64,000 nucleotides of DNA from Winogradskyella forsetii (GTDB taxonomy: Bacteria > Bacteroidota > Bacteroidia > Flavobacteriales > Flavobacteriaceae). The position numbers and the translations under genes are program-made. Where the stretch lies: contig NZ_CP053348.1 in NCBI RefSeq assembly GCF_013394595.1, positions 1,054,001 to 1,118,000 on the forward strand. Reading direction: 5' to 3'. The notes beneath the pieces were generated by a model. That model did not search any database. It saw only the letters and a program-made list of their open reading frames with translations, and had not been told where the DNA came from. Positions 55,090 through 64,000 of this stretch are shown here, piece by piece. Each line of letters starts with the position of its first letter. The stretch's first letter is position 1.

Positions 55090-55297
55090 ACGTTTACAAA
55101 TACTTTTTAAATGTTTGTACGCATTTACAAATACCTAATATCACTTATTCAATTCTGATTGACGAGATAATCTATTAAGAGCGCTTTTTTTAGAAAAATA
55201 CTGATTTACCACCTTGGCAACAATTAAATCATTAACCTAATACGAATAAACATTTCTTTACTAATACTACTGGTATCCATACTAAATAAATAACAGT

Positions 55298-55400
55298 CTA
55301 CTTGACAAGTAGCTAAATTTGAATATCTTTACTACAAACAACCCAGAAGTATAGACTTAAGCGATATAACGTTACTTTTATAGCTTGAGTAACGTTATAT
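55298..55400 (+). promoter_or_regulatory. Left boundary of the cassette array: promoter-like box and two palindromes
   Basis: A perfect palindrome CTACTTG-A-CAAGTAG (55298-55312) abuts a -7-like box TAAATTTG (55314-55321) facing the array; no good -33 TTG was found. Then a perfect 12-bp inverted repeat ATATAACGTTAC / GTAACGTTATAT (55364-55375 and 55389-55400) ends 4 bp before the first GTTGT core (55405). The rest of the 55090-55404 gap has no ORF. Role as array promoter or attI-like site is inference. Confidence 0.4.
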
Positions 55401-55430
55401 GGGTGTTGTGAGCAATTAAAAAGAACATCT

Positions 55431-55940
55431 GTGAGAAACATTTTCAATTTGATTTTATTACTAATTTTCTTCGTTTCTTGTGGACAAAAAGGAAATGAAG
55501 CTACCGATAATGAACTCGGAAATTCTGATTTAAAAAATCAAGAAGATTTATTTGAATTTAAAATACCTGATACAATTTCTCTTGGAAAACATATTGGAAG
55601 AATAGCTAAATATAAACGGAATAAAAAACCGAATTTTGACTATTTATTATCGGTAATTGTGAGTAATGAGTATGAAGACTCAAAAATCAAAACTGATACT
55701 TTCAGTAATGGAACTTTGAATCCATTTTTCGGAATAAACGGATTTAAAACTGGAACACAGGACATAAAATTAATCGTTGAGGAGCAAATTTTGGAACCTT
55801 ATAAAAAGGATATAGATTCGTTTTTAAGTATAAAAAAATTATATCACGAATACGAAGTACGAATTACTGTAGTTGAAAGAGATTATGTTTCTGACATTGA
55901 GGAAAAATTACTCGCTGAATTGAAAAATGAAAAACAATAA
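55431..55940 (+). CDS. Cassette 1: lipoprotein of unknown function
   Basis: 169 aa from a GTG start. Signal peptide and lipobox (LLIFFVSCGQ, Cys about residue 17), then a charged, mixed alpha/beta region without recognised motifs. The GTG is supported because the signal peptide begins there and no in-frame ATG precedes the lipobox. 21 nt separate it from the core GTTGT (55405-55409). The stop at 55938-55940 is next to TGCTCACAAC, which is the exact reverse complement of the cassette start. Confidence 0.78.
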   Translation: MRNIFNLILLLIFFVSCGQKGNEATDNELGNSDLKNQEDLFEFKIPDTISLGKHIGRIAKYKRNKKPNFDYLLSVIVSNEYEDSKIKTDTFSNGTLNPFFGINGFKTGTQDIKLIVEEQILEPYKKDIDSFLSIKKLYHEYEVRITVVERDYVSDIEEKLLAELKNEKQ

Positions 55941-55946
55941 CTGCTC

Positions 55947-56073
55947 ACAACACCGTATAAAATTAATTGCTAGTTCGAGCTTGCTTACGAAAATCCTCGC
56001 GGATTTTCTATTTGGTTTGTATTTGCTAAATTAGGTGCTTGAACACGCAACTAATCTTATACATAAACGTTGT
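55947..56073 (+). other. attC-like site 1 (127 bp)
   Basis: From ACAAC (55947-55951) to GTTGT (56069-56073). 16-nt arms GTATAAAATTAATTGC (left) and GCAACTAATCTTATAC (right) pair except at positions 7 and 12, where the bottom strand has G.T wobbles. The stem then continues with GTTCGAGC/GCTTGAAC. Apical hairpin GAAAATCC-TCGC-GGATTTTC (55989-56008). Unpaired spacer of 3 nt on the left and 6 nt on the right. Confidence 0.8.
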
Positions 56074-56081
56074 AAACAATT

Positions 56082-56873
56082 ATGAAAAACGCATTCGACA
56101 GAAATAAACTTTGTTACTTATACGATGTTGAAGGCAAAAATGACGAACAATTATGTTGTCAAGATATACCTGAGAATATTTCAGAAATTAAAAATCTTCA
56201 CATCTCGACGTTGGCAATGGATTTTCCAGATTCTTTCTCTAAAAAGCAAAGAACTGAACTGGAAAACGACTGGATTGAATTACTACCCAAATTGGATAAT
56301 ATAACTACGTTGTCTATTAGACATAGAGTTAATCAAGAGTATTTTGAGGCAATTTGTAAGATGAAAAATCTCAAGACTCTATTTTTTTGGACATCAACAG
56401 TCGAAAACATAAATTCAATTTCAAAACTAAAAGAATTATCATCTTTATCTCTTCAATCATTTAGTAGACTTAAAAATTTATCTGCTTTAAAATCATTAAA
56501 AAAATTAAGAAGATTAACAATCGAAAATAGTTTTAAAGTTGAGAATTATGAAATCATCGGAGAGATGACTGAATTATCTGGACTTTGTCTTGGAGGAGAT
56601 TTTAGCGCGCCAAAAAACCTAATGCTTGACAGTTTAGTTCCTCTTAAAAGACTTAAAGAATTGAAACATTTGGATATGTCTACTGCATCAATAAGAGATA
56701 AATCTTATGACGTGATTTTGGAAATGGAAAAATTAGAAAGACTTGATGCACATTGGAGAATGACCGACAAAAAACGAACGGAATTGAAAGAAAAACATCC
56801 GAATCTGAAAGCTGGATTTTTTGTTGATTACGATTTTGTCAAAAACGAATTTTATGATGGAAAAGAATGGTGA
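56082..56873 (+). CDS. Cassette 2: leucine-rich-repeat-like protein, copy 1
   Basis: 263 aa, no signal peptide, probably cytoplasmic. Leu-rich repeats of irregular length at about 70-235 (LDNITTLSIRH, MKNLKTLFFW, LKELSSLSLQSF, LKSLKKLRRLTIE, LKRLKELKHLDMS, MEKLERLDAHW), so a short LRR solenoid used for protein binding is likely. The ATG is only 8 nt after the GTTGT core. DNA-identical to the genes at 57086-57877 and, as far as visible, 63367-64000. Function unknown; an immunity-like or interaction role is speculation. Confidence 0.85.
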   Translation: MKNAFDRNKLCYLYDVEGKNDEQLCCQDIPENISEIKNLHISTLAMDFPDSFSKKQRTELENDWIELLPKLDNITTLSIRHRVNQEYFEAICKMKNLKTLFFWTSTVENINSISKLKELSSLSLQSFSRLKNLSALKSLKKLRRLTIENSFKVENYEIIGEMTELSGLCLGGDFSAPKNLMLDSLVPLKRLKELKHLDMSTASIRDKSYDVILEMEKLERLDAHWRMTDKKRTELKEKHPNLKAGFFVDYDFVKNEFYDGKEW

Positions 56874-56885
56874 AAATAACTGTTT

Positions 56886-57077
56886 ACAACAACGTATATA
56901 GCTCATAGCTAGTTAGTTGATTAATCGAAGTTAAGGTATATTTGCTAGTCCGCCAAATTTTTTAATTTGGCTTACTGAGTAAAAAAGATAATAAGAAAAA
57001 TTAAAAAATTCGGCTCGTGCTTAATCCGAAAATAATTTTATAATTTGCACGCTACGAGCCATATACAAGAACGTTGT
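56886..57077 (+). other. attC-like site 2 (192 bp, long class)
   Basis: ACAAC (56886-56890) to GTTGT (57073-57077). Arms GTATATAGCTCATAGC and GCTACGAGCCATATAC again differ at positions 7 and 12 only, as bottom-strand G.T wobbles. Inner hairpin GCCAAATT/AATTTGGC near 56953-56972. The flanking TGTTTACAAC (56881-56890) matches the cassette start GTTGTAAACA at 56069. Confidence 0.8.
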
Positions 57078-57085
57078 AAACAATT

Positions 57086-57877
57086 ATGAAAAACGCATTC
57101 GACAGAAATAAACTTTGTTACTTATACGATGTTGAAGGCAAAAATGACGAACAATTATGTTGTCAAGATATACCTGAGAATATTTCAGAAATTAAAAATC
57201 TTCACATCTCGACGTTGGCAATGGATTTTCCAGATTCTTTCTCTAAAAAGCAAAGAACTGAACTGGAAAACGACTGGATTGAATTACTACCCAAATTGGA
57301 TAATATAACTACGTTGTCTATTAGACATAGAGTTAATCAAGAGTATTTTGAGGCAATTTGTAAGATGAAAAATCTCAAGACTCTATTTTTTTGGACATCA
57401 ACAGTCGAAAACATAAATTCAATTTCAAAACTAAAAGAATTATCATCTTTATCTCTTCAATCATTTAGTAGACTTAAAAATTTATCTGCTTTAAAATCAT
57501 TAAAAAAATTAAGAAGATTAACAATCGAAAATAGTTTTAAAGTTGAGAATTATGAAATCATCGGAGAGATGACTGAATTATCTGGACTTTGTCTTGGAGG
57601 AGATTTTAGCGCGCCAAAAAACCTAATGCTTGACAGTTTAGTTCCTCTTAAAAGACTTAAAGAATTGAAACATTTGGATATGTCTACTGCATCAATAAGA
57701 GATAAATCTTATGACGTGATTTTGGAAATGGAAAAATTAGAAAGACTTGATGCACATTGGAGAATGACCGACAAAAAACGAACGGAATTGAAAGAAAAAC
57801 ATCCGAATCTGAAAGCTGGATTTTTTGTTGATTACGATTTTGTCAAAAACGAATTTTATGATGGAAAAGAATGGTGA
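57086..57877 (+). CDS. Cassette 2': leucine-rich-repeat-like protein, copy 2
   Basis: 263 aa, identical in sequence to copy 1. The whole 1004-bp cassette (57074-58077) repeats the preceding one, including its site. Upstream of the core the two copies differ (site 1 versus site 2 sequence) and downstream they differ after GTTGT, so the duplication is bounded exactly by the cores. Confidence 0.85.
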   Translation: MKNAFDRNKLCYLYDVEGKNDEQLCCQDIPENISEIKNLHISTLAMDFPDSFSKKQRTELENDWIELLPKLDNITTLSIRHRVNQEYFEAICKMKNLKTLFFWTSTVENINSISKLKELSSLSLQSFSRLKNLSALKSLKKLRRLTIENSFKVENYEIIGEMTELSGLCLGGDFSAPKNLMLDSLVPLKRLKELKHLDMSTASIRDKSYDVILEMEKLERLDAHWRMTDKKRTELKEKHPNLKAGFFVDYDFVKNEFYDGKEW

Positions 57878-57889
57878 AAATAACTGTTT

Positions 57890-58081
57890 ACAACAACGTA
57901 TATAGCTCATAGCTAGTTAGTTGATTAATCGAAGTTAAGGTATATTTGCTAGTCCGCCAAATTTTTTAATTTGGCTTACTGAGTAAAAAAGATAATAAGA
58001 AAAATTAAAAAATTCGGCTCGTGCTTAATCCGAAAATAATTTTATAATTTGCACGCTACGAGCCATATACAAGAACGTTGT
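57890..58081 (+). other. attC-like site 2' (192 bp)
   Basis: Identical to site 2 from ACAAC (57890-57894) to GTTGT (58077-58081); the next bases (GTGTAATTT) belong to a different cassette. Confidence 0.8.
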
Positions 58082-58110
58082 GTGTAATTTAAGAAAAACC
58101 GAACTGAAAT

Positions 58111-58683
58111 TTGAAATTGATAAAAAATTTATATTTAATTCTATTTATTCTAATAGCTTTTAGTTGCAATGACAAAAAAGAAAAAACTGATTTCAAAGAA
58201 AATAATGGACTTATAATTGAAAATAAGAAAGAACCGAAAATAAAAAACGTTTTAAGCGAAGAGAAAACTAAAGTTCAATTAGAAGATACAACATCAAAAA
58301 CATATGTTGCGTTGAAATTTATCAACGACTATGTTGTGAATTGTAACAAAATGAAAGAACAAATAGGAATCGTTAAATGGGTAAATTCTAATCAGGATGT
58401 TAGTCAAGAATTTAAAGAAGAACTAAAAAAAATGATTGAAGATGCTTATAAATCTGAACCTGAATACGGACTTGGATTCGACCCGATTTTTGACGCTCAA
58501 GATTATCCCGATGACGGTTTTAAACTTGCTGAATTTGACTCTATTTCAAATTATTTGACTGTAGAAGCTAAAACTTGGAAAGGTTTTTCTATTAATATGA
58601 GGATAAAAGAAGTGAATAATAAATGGTTAGTTGACGGTTGTGGAGTAATTAACATTCCGAAAAACAAGCAAGCGGAAAGATAA
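58111..58683 (+). CDS. Cassette 3: lipoprotein, DUF3828-like
   Basis: 190 aa from a TTG start at 58111. Signal peptide with lipobox LIAFSCND (Cys about residue 19), a Lys/Glu-rich linker, then a globular domain (ALKFINDYVVNC, WVNSNQDVSQEFKEELKK, YGLGFDPIFDAQDYPDDGF, NKWLVDGCGVINIP) similar to DUF3828-type exported proteins. Family call is tentative. Cassette start GTTGTGTGTA (58077-58086) is the exact reverse complement of TACACACAAC just after the gene (58688-58697). Confidence 0.78.
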   Translation: MKLIKNLYLILFILIAFSCNDKKEKTDFKENNGLIIENKKEPKIKNVLSEEKTKVQLEDTTSKTYVALKFINDYVVNCNKMKEQIGIVKWVNSNQDVSQEFKEELKKMIEDAYKSEPEYGLGFDPIFDAQDYPDDGFKLAEFDSISNYLTVEAKTWKGFSINMRIKEVNNKWLVDGCGVINIPKNKQAER

Positions 58684-58692
58684 AAACTACAC

Positions 58693-58821
58693 ACAACATT
58701 GTGTATAGTTCATTGCTTACCAAGTGCTTATCTGGAAAATTCCTTCGGAATTTTCTCAGGCTCGTCAAAGTTTGCTAAATTAGTAACTTAATCACGCAAC
58801 AAACCATACACTGAGCGTTGT
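58693..58821 (+). other. attC-like site 3 (129 bp)
   Basis: ACAAC (58693-58697) to GTTGT (58817-58821). Arms GTGTATAGTTCATTGC and GCAACAAACCATACAC pair with three bottom-strand wobbles (positions 7, 11, 12). Apical hairpin GAAAATTCC-TTC-GGAATTTTC. Nearly identical to site 4, which belongs to a different gene. Confidence 0.8.
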
Positions 58822-58835
58822 AGGTAATTTGACCA

Positions 58836-59255
58836 ATGAGTACGGAAAACAAAAATGAATTGAAAAAACAAGAAAAGACAATCCGAAAAAGTCTTGCATT
58901 GGTGTTTATTCCAATTTTTATTGTAATTATCTCTATCTCACTAATTCAAAACAATTCGCAGAATTATCTTAAAAAAGAATATGAAAAAATCCGAAATAAC
59001 TCATACTCTGGAAAAATAACAAGTCTATTATTAGTCAAAGATAACGGACGAACTAGACCGATTTTAATTGACAATAAATGGGAAAAAGAAATTCCTTTTT
59101 TCATCCACGAAAAAATAAATATTGGAGATTCATTATATAAGAAAATTGATTCTGATTTTGAATATTATGTTAGAAATTCAAAAACGGACACTATAAAAAG
59201 AGATGTCAATGAATTTTATCGTAAAAAATATTTTGACAAACTGAATGAAAAATAA
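58836..59255 (+). CDS. Cassette 4, first ORF: small single-TM protein
   Basis: 139 aa. Lys-rich N-terminus, one membrane segment (about 19-39, LALVFIPIFIVIISISLI) and a basic extracytoplasmic domain (YSGKITSLLLVKDNG, IPFFIHEKINIGDSLYKK). No family recognised. ATG is 14 nt after the core. Followed after 11 bp by a second, interrupted ORF in the same cassette. Confidence 0.72.
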   Translation: MSTENKNELKKQEKTIRKSLALVFIPIFIVIISISLIQNNSQNYLKKEYEKIRNNSYSGKITSLLLVKDNGRTRPILIDNKWEKEIPFFIHEKINIGDSLYKKIDSDFEYYVRNSKTDTIKRDVNEFYRKKYFDKLNEK

Positions 59256-59266
59256 AAAAACTAAAA

Positions 59267-59683
59267 ATGAACACTCAATGTCCTACAGCACCACCTAATA
59301 AAAAAGAATAAATCACAGATATTGGAAAGATATTAGTCGCAGAACACGGAAATAAAAAATACTATAAGCCAGAAGAAGTTAAAAAACCCTCAAAAAAATC
59401 TAAACACTATGATTCTAGCGGAATAGATTGGCATTGTTGGGCTATGTGTACATTCTCTTCTCATTCTGACTTTGACGCTTATCACGAAATTACTGGAGAG
59501 GTATGCAACTATGTTGATATGAAAACCGAAATGTTAAGTGGACTTACAACTTCGACTTCTGTAGATTGGTTAGCAATTCCTGATTTAGATATTGACGCTT
59601 CTTGGCTGGATTTCGGAGATGTCTTTGATGGATTATTAGAAGGTGTTGGAGAATTTATTGGAGGAATATTTGACGGACTATAA
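59267..59683 (+). pseudogene. Cassette 4, second ORF interrupted by an in-frame TAA
   Basis: From ATG 59267 the frame reads MNTQCPTAPPNKKE, then TAA at 59309-59311, and then stays open for about 124 more codons to the stop at 59681. It contains HYDSSGIDWHCWAMCTFSSH and ends in a Gly-rich hydrophobic tail (DGLLEGVGEFIGGIFDGL). One base change (for example CAA or GAA to TAA) explains the break. Alternatively only the part from the ATG at 59444 (79 aa) is translated. No family recognised. Confidence 0.6.
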
Positions 59684-59693
59684 AAAACTACCT

Positions 59694-59822
59694 ACAACAT
59701 TGTGTATAGTTCATTGCTTGCCAAGTGCTTATCTGGAAAATTCCTTCGGAATTTTCTCAGGCTCGTCAAAGTTTGCTAAATTAGTAACTTAATCACGCAA
59801 CAAACCATACACTGAGCGTTGT
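59694..59822 (+). other. attC-like site 4 (129 bp)
   Basis: ACAAC (59694-59698) to GTTGT (59818-59822). Differs from site 3 by one visible base (CTTGCC versus CTTACC). Preceded by TACCTACAAC (59689-59698), the exact reverse complement of the cassette 4 start GTTGTAGGTA at 58817. Confidence 0.8.
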
Positions 59823-59850
59823 AAGTAATGCCGAAAAACCCAGAAACCAA

Positions 59851-60645
59851 GTGAATAAAACAATATTTGAAATTACCAAAATGGATTGTCCTTCAGAGGA
59901 AAATCTTATCCGAATGAAATTGGACGGAATTTCAAGCATTGCGAATTTGGACTTTGATATTCCGAATCGAAAATTGACCGTTTTTCACAGCGGAGAAATT
60001 GACCAAATCGAAAAGTCCGTTATCGAATTGAATTTAGGTGGAAAAAAAATCTCAACGGAACAAACCGACCAAACGGAATTTAAAGAAAACGAAAATCAGA
60101 AAAAACTACTTTGGTCTGTACTTGCCATAAATTTTGCTTTTTTCATTATTGAAATGACAACAGGAATTATCTCAAAATCTATGGGACTTGTTGCCGATAG
60201 TTTAGATATGCTTGCGGACAGTTTTGTGTACGGAATTAGTTTGTTTGCGGTTGGCGGAACAGTAATAAAGAAAAAACGGATTGCCAAACTTGCTGGATAT
60301 TTTCAAATAATACTTGCAATTATTGGATTTGTAGAAGTCTTGAGAAGATTTTTCGGAAACGAGAAACTTCCCGATTTTTCAACAATGATTATAGTTTCGA
60401 TTTTTGCACTTATTGCAAACGGAATTTGTCTTTATATTTTGCAAAAGTCAAAGAGCAAAGAAGAAGCACATATGAAAGCGAGTATGATTTTCACTTCGAA
60501 TGACGTGATTATCAATTTGGGAGTAATTATTGCAGGAATTTTAGTGCATTATTTGAGTTCTAATAAACCTGATTTGATTATCGGAACAATTGTTTTTGCA
60601 TTGGTAATTCAAGGAGCATTTCGGATTTTGAAATTAAGTAAGTGA
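59851..60645 (+). CDS. Cassette 5: cation diffusion facilitator-type transporter with HMA-like N-terminus
   Basis: 264 aa from a GTG start. Residues 1-70 resemble a heavy-metal-associated domain (FEITKMDCPSEENLIRMKLDG), with a single Cys rather than CxxC. Then about six membrane helices of the CDF family: SMGLVADSLDMLADSFVYGI carries the helix-II Asp pair and SMIFTSNDVIINLGVIIAG the helix-V Asn/Asp motif. It probably exports divalent metal ions using the proton gradient; the usual cytoplasmic C-terminal CDF domain is missing. The only cassette in view with a clear physiological function. Confidence 0.85.
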   Translation: MNKTIFEITKMDCPSEENLIRMKLDGISSIANLDFDIPNRKLTVFHSGEIDQIEKSVIELNLGGKKISTEQTDQTEFKENENQKKLLWSVLAINFAFFIIEMTTGIISKSMGLVADSLDMLADSFVYGISLFAVGGTVIKKKRIAKLAGYFQIILAIIGFVEVLRRFFGNEKLPDFSTMIIVSIFALIANGICLYILQKSKSKEEAHMKASMIFTSNDVIINLGVIIAGILVHYLSSNKPDLIIGTIVFALVIQGAFRILKLSK

Positions 60646-60662
60646 ACTAAAAAGCACTACTT

Positions 60663-60789
60663 ACAACAACGTGTATAATTAATGGCTGGTTCTCGCCTAC
60701 TTACGAAAATCCTCGCGGATTTTCTATTCGGTTTTTATTTGCTAAATTAGGTGCTTAAACACGCCACTAATCATACACAAAACCGTTGT
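60663..60789 (+). other. attC-like site 5 (127 bp)
   Basis: ACAAC (60663-60667) to GTTGT (60785-60789). Arms GTGTATAATTAATGGC and GCCACTAATCATACAC, wobbles at positions 7 and 12; apical hairpin GAAAATCC-TCGC-GGATTTTC. Preceded by TACTTACAAC, complementary to GTTGTAAGTA at 59818; pairing resumes past the fixed A/C position with TGC. Confidence 0.8.
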
Positions 60790-60848
60790 AAAACATATTG
60801 AAAAACAAGTTGCATACAATAATTTTATAAAGCATATTAAAATAATTG

Positions 60849-60856
60849 TATCTTTG
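60849..60856 (+). promoter_or_regulatory. -7 box inside cassette 6
   Basis: TATCTTTG matches TAnnTTTG and lies only 4 bp before the GTG start at 60861, implying a leaderless or near-leaderless transcript. No TTG -33 element at normal spacing. The 71-nt leader between core and gene is longer than in the other cassettes, consistent with a private promoter. Confidence 0.45.
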
Positions 60857-60860
60857 AATT

Positions 60861-61640
60861 GTGGAAAAAATTGGAGACATAGAAATCCGAGTTGTAGGAA
60901 AATCAGGGAATCAAAGTTTAAGTCCTGACAACTACGATATTAAGCATATTGCAACTATTTTGCAAAATGTTGAGGACTTACTATATCCAAACAATAAGAA
61001 AGATAGACCAATTATTACTTATGATATTCAAGAAGGTTCTGTCAGACATCTATTTAAAACAACTATTCAAACAGTAATTGGATTTAGTGCTGTGTTAGGA
61101 CAAGTTCAAGCTAATGAATCAATAGATTTTCTGGAATTAAAAACTGCGAGAGCTATTGAAAATATTCAAAATTTATCACGTCAGAAAAATTATGAATTTC
61201 AAATTAAAACTTCTCTCAAAGACGACTATGAATTAACTATTAATCCTTCTACTAAATATTTTAGAACAGAAAATATTTGGGTTGAAGCGGAATTCTATTT
61301 TTATGGTATTCTAAAAGATGCTGGCGGAAAAAGTAAAGCTAACATCCATTTAGATACTAAAGATTACGGATACTTATCGATTGAAACTGGAGAAGAGTTT
61401 TTAAAGGAAAGAGAAGAAAATTTACTTTATAAAAAATTTGGTGTTAGAGTGAGTGGAAAACAAAACATTGAAACTGGCGAAATTGACACAAAATCACTTT
61501 CTTTATTAGAACTAATTGATTATCAACCAAAATTTGACAGCGACTATCTGAATTCACTAATTAAAAAAGCCAAAAAAAGCTGGAATAATATTAATCCAGA
61601 TGAATGGCTGTTAAATTTAAGAGGTGGATATGAAGCATAG
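60861..61640 (+). CDS. Cassette 6, first ORF: partner of the PIN-domain protein
   Basis: 259 aa, GTG start, no signal peptide or membrane segment, mixed alpha/beta (IEIRVVGKSGNQSLSPDNYD, YDIQEGSVRHLFKTTIQTVIG, ANIHLDTKDYGYLSIETGEE). Family not recognised. It overlaps the following PIN-domain gene by 11 bp (17 bp if that gene starts at its GTG), the arrangement of a toxin-antitoxin pair with the antitoxin first, but at 259 aa it is far larger than a usual VapB. Could instead be a nucleic-acid-binding cofactor. Confidence 0.7.
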   Translation: MEKIGDIEIRVVGKSGNQSLSPDNYDIKHIATILQNVEDLLYPNNKKDRPIITYDIQEGSVRHLFKTTIQTVIGFSAVLGQVQANESIDFLELKTARAIENIQNLSRQKNYEFQIKTSLKDDYELTINPSTKYFRTENIWVEAEFYFYGILKDAGGKSKANIHLDTKDYGYLSIETGEEFLKEREENLLYKKFGVRVSGKQNIETGEIDTKSLSLLELIDYQPKFDSDYLNSLIKKAKKSWNNINPDEWLLNLRGGYEA

Positions 61641-62112
61641 TGTTTTATTAGATACAAGTTTTTTTATTCGACTTCTTAATGATGAAGACCCACTTCACTC
61701 AAATGCTGTTGGTTATTTTAAATATTTCTTGGAAAACGAAATAGCTTTAAAAATTTCTACTATTAGTATTGCAGAATATTGTGTTCTTGGAAAACTTGAA
61801 GATTTACCACTAAAAAATGTCCAAATTGTTCCGTTCAACTTAAAAGATGCTGAAAAGACAGGAGAATTTGCCGAAATTATTTTTTCGCAGAATAAAATCA
61901 ATGTCAAGAAACTATCACCTAGAGCAATAATTCCAAACGATTCAAAGCTTTTTGCACAATCGGATTTAGATAAAACTATTAGTCATTTTGTAACTTCTGA
62001 CGTTCGTTCAAAAAACACTTTAGCTTTATTAAAGAAAGGAACAAATCCAAAATTCGATATAATTAGTATTGATGTTCCATTTACAGAAACATTCGGAATT
62101 TTAGATTTATAA
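61630..62112 (+). CDS. Cassette 6, second ORF: PIN-domain protein (VapC-like RNase)
   Basis: 160 aa from ATG 61630 (a GTG two codons earlier at 61624 is possible). PIN-domain acidic residues appear in the right order: Asp in SVLLDTSFFIRLL, Glu in STISIAEYCVLG, Asp in AIIPNDSKLFAQSD, Asp in SHFVTSDVRSK. PIN proteins are Mg-dependent ribonucleases, most often toxins. Overlap with the upstream gene suggests translational coupling. Toxin-antitoxin modules are known stabilisers of integron cassette arrays. Confidence 0.75.
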   Translation: MKHSVLLDTSFFIRLLNDEDPLHSNAVGYFKYFLENEIALKISTISIAEYCVLGKLEDLPLKNVQIVPFNLKDAEKTGEFAEIIFSQNKINVKKLSPRAIIPNDSKLFAQSDLDKTISHFVTSDVRSKNTLALLKKGTNPKFDIISIDVPFTETFGILDL

Positions 62113-62123
62113 AAATACGTTTT

Positions 62124-62253
62124 ACAACACCGTATATAATTTATTGCTGGCTTCTTGCCTACTTGCGAAAGTCCTCGCGGACTTTCTTTGTCCGTAATTA
62201 TTTACTAAATTAGTTGCTTAAAACACGCAACAAACCATATACAACAACGTTGT
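62124..62253 (+). other. attC-like site 6 (130 bp)
   Basis: ACAAC (62124-62128) to GTTGT (62249-62253). Arms GTATATAATTTATTGC and GCAACAAACCATATAC pair with wobbles at 7, 8 and 12. Apical hairpin GAAAGTCC-TCGC-GGACTTTC, a compensatory A-T to G-C change relative to sites 1 and 5. Preceded by GTTTTACAAC, complementary to GTTGTAAAAC at 60785. Confidence 0.8.
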
Positions 62254-62272
62254 AAAACATTTAAAACAAACA

Positions 62273-63151
62273 TTGAGGAACATTTTACTCTTTTTTTTCA
62301 TAATCATAACCAACTTGGCGTTTAGTCAAAATACGGAATATAGCGGAATCGTTTATGGAGACGGTTATCCTGTAGTCGGAGCAACCATTTTAGTTAAAGA
62401 CTCGACTATAAACACGAAAACAGATTTTGATGGAAAGTTTACTATCAATGTTCCTGATGAATTTAATGTTCTGATTTTTAGCTACGCTGGATATGAAACC
62501 ATAAATTATAATCTTTCAGAAAATACGTCTTTATCTATTGAAATGTCAACATATCAAGAACGTGGAATTTGGATGTCAATAGGTACTTTTTCAGATATAA
62601 CTTTTGCACCTTATGGAATTTCAATAAGTAATGGACAAGATGAGCAGAATCTACTTCATTTTGAAAGTTTTCAAGAGAGTATCTCAGTAAAATTAGCGCT
62701 TGCAACAAATTTTGATGATAATTTGACTTACGAAACAAGATTGAGTTATCATAGACCACTTCTCAAAAACTCTTTTTACAATACTTCTATTGAGTATCTG
62801 AAAAAGGAATATTCTGAATTGGAATTAATGGACATCAGTCTCACTACCGATGTAATAGATTTACCATTTATAAACTCTCTTCTTACAACTAAGGTTGGAA
62901 TACAAGATTTTAAAGAGCAACAAAGTTTTGGAGCTGCAATTGGATTAAAGCGATGGCATCATAATTCTAACTTACAATATGGTGCACAAATAGGCTATTG
63001 GAATGATTACTTTACGTATAATTTTCATTTCCGTAAATTTATCTATAAAGATATTTTTAGTCTTGTCGCAAAATATAATAGAATTGATGATGCTGATTTT
63101 TTTGTAGCTGGAGTCCATTTTCTATTTAAAACTAACAAGCAAAAATATTAG
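62273..63151 (+). CDS. Cassette 7: exported protein with carboxypeptidase-like regulatory domain
   Basis: 292 aa from a TTG start. Signal peptide (IITNLAFSQ), a carboxypeptidase-D regulatory-type domain at about 20-90 (YSGIVYGDGYPVVGATILVK, KTDFDGKFTINVP, LIFSYAGYETINYNL) as at the start of TonB-dependent receptors, then about 200 residues with beta-barrel-like strands (FGAAIGLKRWHH, YGAQIGYWNDYFTYNFHF, FFVAGVHFLFK), so an outer-membrane location is plausible. Unusually complete envelope protein for a cassette. Confidence 0.8.
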   Translation: MRNILLFFFIIITNLAFSQNTEYSGIVYGDGYPVVGATILVKDSTINTKTDFDGKFTINVPDEFNVLIFSYAGYETINYNLSENTSLSIEMSTYQERGIWMSIGTFSDITFAPYGISISNGQDEQNLLHFESFQESISVKLALATNFDDNLTYETRLSYHRPLLKNSFYNTSIEYLKKEYSELELMDISLTTDVIDLPFINSLLTTKVGIQDFKEQQSFGAAIGLKRWHHNSNLQYGAQIGYWNDYFTYNFHFRKFIYKDIFSLVAKYNRIDDADFFVAGVHFLFKTNKQKY

Positions 63152-63167
63152 TGCGAAAAAACGTTTT

Positions 63168-63358
63168 ACAACAACGTATATAGCTCATAGCTAATTAGTT
63201 GCTTAATCGAACTTAAGGCTTATTTGGAAAGTCGCCAAAATTTTAAATTTGACGATTTCCAACAAAAAAATAAATAGTAAAATTTAAAAATCTGGCTTGT
63301 GCTCAACCGAAAATAATTTTATAATTTGCACGCTACGAGCCATATACACAACCGTTGT
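63168..63358 (+). other. attC-like site 7 (191 bp, long class)
   Basis: ACAAC (63168-63172) to GTTGT (63354-63358). Arms identical to site 2, but the central part differs, with its own hairpin (GGAAAGTCGCCAAA... pairing with ...TTTGACGATTTCC). Preceded by GTTTTACAAC, complementary to the cassette 7 start GTTGTAAAAC at 62249. Confidence 0.78.
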
Positions 63359-63366
63359 AAACAATT

Positions 63367-64000
63367 ATGAAAAACGCATTCGACAGAAATAAACTTTGTT
63401 ACTTATACGATGTTGAAGGCAAAAATGACGAACAATTATGTTGTCAAGATATACCTGAGAATATTTCAGAAATTAAAAATCTTCACATCTCGACGTTGGC
63501 AATGGATTTTCCAGATTCTTTCTCTAAAAAGCAAAGAACTGAACTGGAAAACGACTGGATTGAATTACTACCCAAATTGGATAATATAACTACGTTGTCT
63601 ATTAGACATAGAGTTAATCAAGAGTATTTTGAGGCAATTTGTAAGATGAAAAATCTCAAGACTCTATTTTTTTGGACATCAACAGTCGAAAACATAAATT
63701 CAATTTCAAAACTAAAAGAATTATCATCTTTATCTCTTCAATCATTTAGTAGACTTAAAAATTTATCTGCTTTAAAATCATTAAAAAAATTAAGAAGATT
63801 AACAATCGAAAATAGTTTTAAAGTTGAGAATTATGAAATCATCGGAGAGATGACTGAATTATCTGGACTTTGTCTTGGAGGAGATTTTAGCGCGCCAAAA
63901 AACCTAATGCTTGACAGTTTAGTTCCTCTTAAAAGACTTAAAGAATTGAAACATTTGGATATGTCTACTGCATCAATAAGAGATAAATCTTATGACGTGA
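63367..64000 (+). CDS. Cassette 8: leucine-rich-repeat-like protein, copy 3 (3' cut by window)
   Basis: The first 634 bp match copies 1 and 2 base for base by eye. Identity begins at the CGTTGT core; the preceding site (site 7) is different from the ones before copies 1 and 2. The remainder of the gene and its site lie beyond the window. Confidence 0.85.
   Translation, partial: MKNAFDRNKLCYLYDVEGKNDEQLCCQDIPENISEIKNLHISTLAMDFPDSFSKKQRTELENDWIELLPKLDNITTLSIRHRVNQEYFEAICKMKNLKTLFFWTSTVENINSISKLKELSSLSLQSFSRLKNLSALKSLKKLRRLTIENSFKVENYEIIGEMTELSGLCLGGDFSAPKNLMLDSLVPLKRLKELKHLDMSTASIRDKSYDV

What the first reader, a model, noticed from the sequence alone, without database searches (positions are those of the whole stretch)
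55405..64000. Integron-like cassette array in a Flavobacteriaceae chromosome without a visible integrase
Eight complete cassettes plus the start of a ninth follow fabH in the same orientation. Each has one or two ORFs plus one folded site of 127-130 or 191-192 bp. Boundaries are regular (GTTGT cores at 55405, 56069, 57073, 58077, 58817, 59818, 60785, 62249, 63354). Head-to-tail gene+site units are known for integrons and CALINs; here the core is GTTGT plus variable bases, not the textbook GTTRRRY, and no tyrosine recombinase is encoded. It may be a divergent integron lineage or a related cassette system.
Basis: partly seen in the sequence, partly recalled or inferred. Interest (0 to 1): 0.95.

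Follow-up and report, generated by a model that had tools for sequence, protein, structure and literature searches.

The report
Flavobacterial integron run by insert-less integrase
In this bacterium mostly single genes, each ending in a DNA hairpin, sit head to tail in several arrays and recur as exact units in different places, and a recombinase that lacks the hallmark insert of integron integrases heads the main array and is predicted to move them; matching hairpins were found in 181 of 199 sampled genomes of the same family, so this is likely a major and little-noticed gene-capture system.

Summary
In detail: eight complete head-to-tail units plus the start of a ninth lie at 55405-64000. 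They belong to a genome-wide integron-like system. The array runs on to about 28 kb, and the genome holds at least 140 such sites. Each unit's first bases are complementary to the 5' arm of its own hairpin, as in integron cassettes, and near-identical units recur with breaks at the GTT core. Just before the window's first unit lies a copy of an attI-like site; the same site follows a tyrosine recombinase gene at 2.13 Mb that heads an array of about 54 kb. A stub of that gene's 3' end still precedes the window's copy, so this array is likely a decayed, integrase-less daughter. Homologous recombinases head arrays in other genera; of 199 sampled family genomes 134 have the recombinase and 181 the sites. 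All 31 enzymes of this family that I aligned lack the ~42-residue insert that defines IntI, yet they fall beside IntI in the tree (weak support). It is therefore not a canonical integron or CALIN, but very likely works like one. I found no description of it in the papers I could search. No recombination was tested.

The parts
55279..55333 (+). Stub of the recombinase gene's 3' end (likely decayed integrase remnant)
   Evidence: Aligns to nt 1060-1116 of the 2.13-Mb recombinase gene, score 49 against a maximum of 36 in 200 shuffles; alignment of seven copies
55302..55330 (+). Predicted cassette promoter, TTG-N19-TANCTTT
   Evidence: Same place in 5 of 7 attI copies; that this resembles a Bacteroidota promoter is recalled
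55364..55408 (+). attI-like site: inverted repeat ATATAACGTTAC...GTAACGTTATAT, then GGGT-GTTG
   Evidence: the same site follows the recombinase gene at 2130468
55405..56068 (+). Unit 1: putative lipoprotein ORF 55431-55940 (by eye), site 55948-56072
   Evidence: starts GTTGTGAGCA, own arm TGCTCACAAC
56069..57072 (+). Unit 2: leucine-rich-repeat ORF 56082-56873, long site 56887-57076
57073..58076 (+). Unit 3: copy of unit 2, ORF 57086-57877, site 57891-58080
   Evidence: 100% identical to unit 2 with different neighbours
58077..58816 (+). Unit 4: putative lipoprotein ORF 58111-58683 (by eye), site 58694-58820
   Evidence: 100% identical copy at 4491971
58817..59817 (+). Unit 5: ORF 58836-59255 and ORF 59444-59683, site 59695-59821
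   Evidence: the 139-aa ORF recurs as the first ORF after the attI copy at 1432821
59818..60784 (+). Unit 6: cation-efflux family ORF 59851-60645, site 60664-60788
   Evidence: PF01545 3.3e-18
60785..62248 (+). Unit 7: two overlapping ORFs 60861-61640 and 61624-62112, site 62125-62252
   Evidence: no family match, and only a marginal methyltransferase match for the second ORF (E 0.0084)
62249..63353 (+). Unit 8: ORF with carboxypeptidase-regulatory-like domain 62273-63151, long site 63169-63357
   Evidence: PF13715 9.7e-12
63354..64000 (+). Unit 9, start: another copy of the LRR unit, runs past the window
   Evidence: its site lies at G000:C1:1118172

Best explanation
The window holds what is likely a decayed copy of an integron-like platform: an attI-like site with a stub of the recombinase gene before it, followed by single- or two-gene cassettes, each ending in a foldable attC-like hairpin, which a tyrosine recombinase encoded 1 Mb away at the head of the main array is predicted to cut out and insert. 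Shown by sequence: unit borders, complementarity of each unit's start with its own hairpin arm, hairpin covariation, exact reuse of whole units, attI-like copies at seven array starts, and the recombinase at array heads in other genera. Inferred: a cassette leaves as a circle when the bottom strand of its site folds and is cut at the GTT core, and enters at attI or at another site; a promoter beside attI would express the first cassettes; arrays without a recombinase gene would be served in trans. The enzyme lacks the IntI insert, so it must recognise the folded site some other way, possibly through its extra N-terminal domain or through the A.C / G.T asymmetry of the stem.
For: Start/own-arm complementarity in the own genome: 74 site pairs, 5.84 of 8 against 2.94 shuffled, maximum 3.55; 46 distinct pairs, 6.13 against 2.85. 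Other genera: 62 distinct pairs, 5.92 against 2.69. Mobility: among 79 units of the fetched parts, 7 families with 20 copies; six of the seven families span different arrays (one unit of 4.3 kb, 100% identical); identity ends at most 8 bp upstream and 3-9 bp into the next unit. Hairpin: 97.7% of 559 cells paired, 64 double changes against 16 shuffled. The bottom strand folds more stably in 78 of 79 circular-form and 76 of 79 array-form sites. Seven attI-like copies, none in the control, each followed on its strand by a site. Co-occurrence in 199 genomes: both 131, sites only 50, recombinase only 3, neither 15, Fisher p 5e-6. No IntI insert: 90-91 residues between Arg I and His in 31 of 31 enzymes of the family, 132-133 in 18 of 18 IntI; Arg, His, Arg, Tyr intact in 31 of 31.
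Against: No reaction was observed. The recombinase of this genome is 1 Mb from the window. Its weak IntI-model match is not specific in itself: the same model rings, under its cut-off, in 14 of 14 control genomes. 50 of 181 genomes with sites have no recombinase at E<=1e-42, and many listed hits are flagged with an inner stop. Two of the 18 regions (L097, L106) show no co-oriented array after the recombinase; two more end at contig borders. L060 and L063 have a site upstream of the recombinase on the same strand. Most of the 18 came from genomes picked for many sites. The attI inverted repeat is strong only in some subclades: 9 of 28 exceed all 50 of their shuffles. Two small sets of start/arm pairs do not exceed their best shuffle. 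Another recombinase, carried antisense inside arrays, could be the real mover in some genomes. Grouping with IntI is only weakly supported (84/58, 95/78).
Confidence: 0.87

Rival explanations
1. Canonical integron cassettes or a CALIN, moved by a classical IntI supplied in passing.
For: Site architecture, bottom-strand bias and circular complementarity match attC. Canonical IntI is common elsewhere in the phylum: 85 of 296 genomes over the model's cut-off.
Against: The genome has no match over the IntI cut-off. Of the genomes with a match one is of the own class and none of the own family. The recombinase found at array heads lacks the insert. Sites occur in 181 of 199 genomes of this family.
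Confidence: 0.05
2. The sites are real but are worked by another tyrosine recombinase: host XerC/XerD, or the roughly 300-aa recombinase that sits antisense inside arrays. The head recombinase would be only a passenger.
For: In L109, L065, L114 and L182 a second recombinase gene lies antisense within the array next to a site. 50 of 181 genomes with sites have no head recombinase at E<=1e-42.
Against: In this genome the two matches nearest to that size (327 and 308 aa) group with Xer proteins, not with the second clade, yet cassettes are freshly duplicated. Head recombinases are followed by attI-like sites; what follows the second type was not examined.
Confidence: 0.06
3. No enzyme: repeats of hairpin DNA recombine homologously and duplicate genes by unequal crossing over.
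For: Units 2 and 3 are adjacent identical copies, and the sites share long identical stretches.
Against: Copies have unrelated neighbours and break at the core, not within the repeat, and six of seven families span distant arrays. Homologous exchange between repeats would not keep each unit's start complementary to its own arm.
Confidence: 0.02

Closest known systems
Sedentary chromosomal integrons (Vibrio superintegron, IntIA, VCR sites; array details recalled)
   Same: Large arrays of mostly single-gene cassettes, long attC hairpins (125-190 bp here), integrase and attI at the head, bottom-strand folding bias, own-arm complementarity of the cassette's ends
   Different: The recombinase lacks the ~42-residue IntI insert, has an extra N-terminal stretch of about 90 residues and points the same way as the array; core GTTR-N, not GTTRRRY; attI-like site an inverted repeat in some subclades; seven attI copies in this genome
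CALIN (cluster of attC sites lacking integron integrases)
   Same: The window's array has sites and no recombinase gene
   Different: It keeps an attI-like site and a recombinase-gene stub, and belongs to a different recombinase lineage
xerD-tet(X3)-res-ISCR2 segment of Acinetobacter plasmids (PMC8635130, passages read)
   Same: Its xerD falls inside the array-head recombinase clade and is followed by an inverted repeat plus a GTTA core before tet(X3)
   Different: ISCR2-borne fragment in another phylum; no own site of the cassette seen after tet(X3) in the stretch read
Integrons of Archaea (PMC9668308, passages read)
   Same: Integron found outside the usual groups by searching for IntI genes and attC clusters
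   Different: Those IntIs are reported to have the IntI-specific domain

Membership tests
Integron (IntI/attI/attC) | Tyrosine recombinase with catalytic residues and the IntI-specific insert | tested here: not met
   Arg, His, Arg, Tyr present in 31 of 31; insert absent in 31 of 31. TIGR02249 187.7 bits against a 265 cut-off
Integron (IntI/attI/attC) | attI beside the integrase gene, first cassette starting at its core | tested here: met
   By position and sequence only. Insertion not tested
Integron (IntI/attI/attC) | attC: imperfect hairpin with two inverted box pairs at each cassette's 3' end | tested here: met
   Covariation, folds
Integron (IntI/attI/attC) | Core GTTRRRY / RYYYAAC | tested here: not met
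   Cores are GTTR followed by any base, e.g. GTTGTAA, GTTGCCA
Integron (IntI/attI/attC) | Cassette start complementary to its own attC 5' arm | tested here: met
Integron (IntI/attI/attC) | Extra-helical bases setting strand choice | tested here: inconclusive
   Bottom strand more stable in 78 of 79; the stem has fixed A.C (top) / G.T (bottom) positions instead of clear bulges; seen by eye in alignment A2, not counted
Integron (IntI/attI/attC) | Excision and insertion of circular cassettes by the integrase | not testable with these tools
   Needs an experiment; unit mobility inferred
CALIN | Two or more attC within 4 kb of each other and no IntI nearby (definition of attC clusters as in PMC9668308) | tested here: inconclusive
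   Array without recombinase in the window, but the sites are not canonical attC and IntegronFinder could not be run

The most novel reading that the evidence does not exclude
Flavobacteriaceae and other Bacteroidota carry their own integron lineage, near-universal in the family, whose integrase recombines folded single-stranded cassette sites without the I2 insert held to be what made integrons possible; this lineage is the main gene-capture engine of these bacteria and the platform from which tet(X3) was exported to Acinetobacter.
Probability: 0.6. Interest if true: 0.95.

Novelty: new variant of a known kind. Interest (0 to 1): 0.9.

Why it matters
Integron integrases are said to have gained single-strand recombination by acquiring the I2 helix, while direct proof is said to be missing because deleting it kills IntI1 (PMC7790495, passages read). 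A neighbouring recombinase family that heads arrays of foldable sites without that insert makes the question directly testable. It would also mean that a whole bacterial family has a gene-capture system that IntI-based searches likely miss: in the passages I read, IntegronFinder 2.0 names one complete integron within Bacteroidetes proper, in Salinibacter ruber (PMC9024848). It also offers a source for many accessory genes.

Tried and rejected
Rfam gave nothing at its gathering scores in the window. The Pfam, NCBIfam and PADLOC scans left most cassette ORFs unnamed. My first attI regex failed for most loci and was replaced by hand-read cores. A strict family-wide attI pattern hit only 6 of 199 genomes, because attI differs between subclades. 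A first recombinase threshold of 1e-80 gave 7 of 199 and was too strict; 1e-42 gave 134 of 199. The AlphaFold model (pLDDT 75.8, pTM 0.47) finds XerA first and IntI4 next; it is too weak to use. In the first tree a long row (OTH_L110) fell into the head group; I dropped it and OTH_L034, another long row. A simple spacing count of the insert region worked for 26 of 31 enzymes and gave one IntI at 114 through a false second match; the alignment count replaced it. The N-terminal stretch has no Pfam match. I considered HUH/Y1 transposases and pdif-type Xer modules (both recalled) and set them aside, because the array-head gene is a tyrosine recombinase next to attI.
Full report
OBSERVATION. The nine GTTGT cores are at the stated places. 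With the stretch fetched beyond the window the array runs from 1109405 to about 1137431 in the 4.51-Mb genome (window = 1054001-1118000); 21 sites lie in it on the + strand, 15 listed and six long ones. In the whole genome a site pattern gives 147 hits against 14 for the reversed control, and a covariance model (R1, 43 short sites) gives 140 matches at E<=0.01 with 150 candidates scored, so this is a lower bound. Other groups of sites lie near 0.42, 1.40-1.43, 1.64-1.66, 2.13-2.18, 2.40-2.42, 2.85, 2.99, 3.10 and 4.47-4.50 Mb.

UNIT ANATOMY. A unit is GTTR, a variable stretch, usually one gene, then the site. The bases after a unit's starting GTT are the reverse complement of the 5' arm of that same unit's site, not of the neighbour's. 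Over 74 consecutive pairs, 5.84 of 8 variable positions match, against 2.94 for shuffled partners (maximum of 2000 shuffles 3.55). With repeats removed it is 46 distinct pairs, 6.13 against 2.85. In other genera it is 62 distinct pairs, 5.92 against 2.69, maximum 3.29. Two small sets, a Persicobacter plasmid (6 distinct pairs) and a congener (4), only equal the best shuffle. This is what a circle closed at the core would give, as in integron cassettes. Of the 79 units that a regex found in the fetched parts of the genome, the longest ATG-started frame is on the sense strand in 70, and the median unit is 918 bp.

HAIRPIN. The outer stem has 13 consensus pairs: 97.7% of 559 cells pair, 7 pairs vary on both sides, 64 cells are double changes (shuffled mean 16.2), and slid controls fall to 19-51% paired. 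Folded as single-stranded DNA, the bottom strand is more stable than the top in 78 of 79 circular-form and 76 of 79 array-form sites. In the alignment the reason looks to be fixed A.C positions on the top strand, which read G.T on the bottom strand; I did not count these apart. attC sites are used on the bottom strand (PMC2727003, passages read).

MOVEMENT. Among the 79 units, 7 families hold 20 copies at 90% identity or more, many at 100%. The LRR unit of the window has five copies, all in this array; the other six families span different arrays, and a 4295-bp unit is identical at 1118358 and 2131897. For every pair the flanks differ: identity runs on at most 8 bp upstream and 3-9 bp into the next unit, that is, about as far as the conserved core. 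At the fabH locus, of 15 congeners fetched (L205 and L207 end early at contig borders) one (L208) has an eight-site array right after fabH, starting at another attI type and with genes unlike the window's (only site repeats match), one (L207) has a site about 5.4 kb downstream, and 13 have no array directly after fabH, L209 with one site on the other strand 9 kb away.

RECOMBINASE AND attI. The best IntI-like match in the genome is a 378-aa tyrosine recombinase at 2129318-2130454, co-oriented with and directly before the array that starts at 2130.5 kb. It is under the model's cut-off, and the same model rings under its cut-off in 14 of 14 control genomes, so the case rests on position and relatives. 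Just after its stop codon lies AACGTTACTTTTATAGCTTGAGTAAC flanked by inverted arms and followed by GTTG, the start of the first cassette. This sequence has seven copies at up to 3 mismatches and none in the control; each is followed on its strand by a site. One copy is at 55368 in the window. Upstream of four of the six recombinase-less copies, the window's included, a stretch of 48-80 nt from near the end of the recombinase gene is still recognisable (scores 49, 70, 36, 61 against maxima of 36, 35, 30, 32 in 200 shuffles; the other two copies score 22 and 20, within their shuffles). So the window's array most likely descends from a complete platform that lost its recombinase gene. A TTG-N19-TANCTTT motif sits at one place in 5 of 7 copies and may be the cassette promoter.

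RELATIVES. By eye, all 12 named loci that encode a close relative show an inverted-repeat, often imperfect, attI-like stretch after the gene. Measured on 28 attI regions (12 named, 16 unnamed; L097 and L106 left out because no core was recognised) the mean longest perfect arm is 8.0 against 5.7 shuffled, and 9 of 28 exceed all 50 of their own shuffles. Seven regions that form one clade (L098, L100, L101, L103, L105, L107, L108) instead show variants of ATATAACNA before GTTR (read by eye). Of 12 named loci, 5 have sites downstream (L062, L065, L067, L068, L071), 5 have under 200 bp of sequence there, and L063 and L066 have 1.2 and 2.2 kb without one; L060 and L063 have one site each upstream of the recombinase, same strand.

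DISTRIBUTION. In 199 genomes of the family (198 genera, at most 17 candidates scored per genome) 181 have sites at E<=1e-4. The family is coded f1; I take it to be Flavobacteriaceae from the named relatives. The recombinase at E<=1e-42 is in 134 of 199: both 131, sites only 50, recombinase only 3, neither 15, Fisher p = 5e-6 (genera are not independent). With this family-trained model, 50 of 247 genomes of the class have sites. Similar sites lie on plasmids of Tenacibaculum, Flagellimonas and Persicobacter (5 records of 72,556); none in the phage collection at that sensitivity.

IS IT AN INTEGRON? Canonical IntI is over the model's cut-off in 85 of 296 genomes of the phylum; of the genomes listed with a match one is of the own class and none of the own family. 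The 31 enzymes of the head family that I aligned (L097 and L106 and near-copies included) have 90-91 residues between Arg I and the HxLRH histidine, IntI 132-133 in 18 of 18, three Xer proteins 92-97. All 31 keep Arg, His, Arg and Tyr. A C-terminal SPLD-like motif is in 28 of 31 of them, in 26 of 26 IntI and in 4 of 11 others. In trees the head rows are one group (27 rows, 100/100; with five plasmid recombinases 32 rows, 99/94), IntI is another (100/100), and the two join with 84/58 or 95/78: likely neighbours, not shown. So the system works like an integron but fails the enzyme criterion; I call it a new variant.

IN PRINT. Searches of an open-licence PMC library, listings only except for the papers named here, gave no description of this lineage; subscription papers and preprints were not covered. 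A survey of tyrosine recombinases says that the insert is not fully conserved in its integron-like subgroup (PMC8138268, passages read), so insert-less neighbours have been seen, but not linked to cassette arrays in the passages I read.

LINK TO tet(X3). The xerD beside tet(X3) on Acinetobacter plasmids, a known arrangement (PMC8635130, passages read), falls inside the array-head clade and is followed by an inverted repeat, GTTATGTGCCA and then tet(X3). This looks like a recombinase, attI and first cassette cut out of such a platform. I did not see the cassette's own site after tet(X3) in that plasmid. This is a lead, not a result.

On re-reading the calls I corrected the number of genomes behind the 18 regions (15), the source of the 21 sites of the window's array, 'genera' to 'genomes' where 199 is meant, and the claim that only head recombinases are followed by attI-like sites (the second type was not examined). 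I also added the upstream sites in L060 and L063 and the non-specific control.

Noticed in passing
L109 1875-2693 and 6100-6918; L065 near 19929 (-); L114 near 12688 (-); L182 7008-7916 (-); L105 3044-3861 in pieces: A second tyrosine recombinase (about 300 aa, most copies ending SPLDRL or similar) lies antisense inside arrays with a site at its start-codon side. The three members put in the tree form a separate 100/100 clade. It may be a recombinase carried as a cassette.
   Followed up: partly
L183 2967-5117 (Acinetobacter baylyi plasmid): The tet(X3)-linked xerD belongs to the array-head recombinase clade and is followed by an attI-like inverted repeat and GTTA core.
   Followed up: partly
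L184 and L187 (Pontibacter and Rufibacter plasmids): A related recombinase of 484 aa is followed by co-oriented small genes separated by short sites, some of about 65 bp with a GC-rich hairpin; these look like a compact version of the same site.
   Followed up: partly
G000:C1 2130.5-2131.3 kb (L031 2442-3188): The first cassette after the recombinase encodes a predicted HhH DNA glycosylase-like protein, a weak match.
   Followed up: no
IMG/VR loci L158-L180: 23 stretches of viral-labelled contigs hold the site pattern, several with multiple sites. I did not check whether these are true viruses or host DNA.
   Followed up: no
G233: A genome of the same class that has both a canonical IntI over the cut-off and a match to the new site model.
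   Followed up: no
fabH downstream in L207, L208 and the window: The place after fabH carries an array or, by eye, attI-like sequence in more than one congener, with different attI types; it may be a recurrent insertion place.
   Followed up: partly
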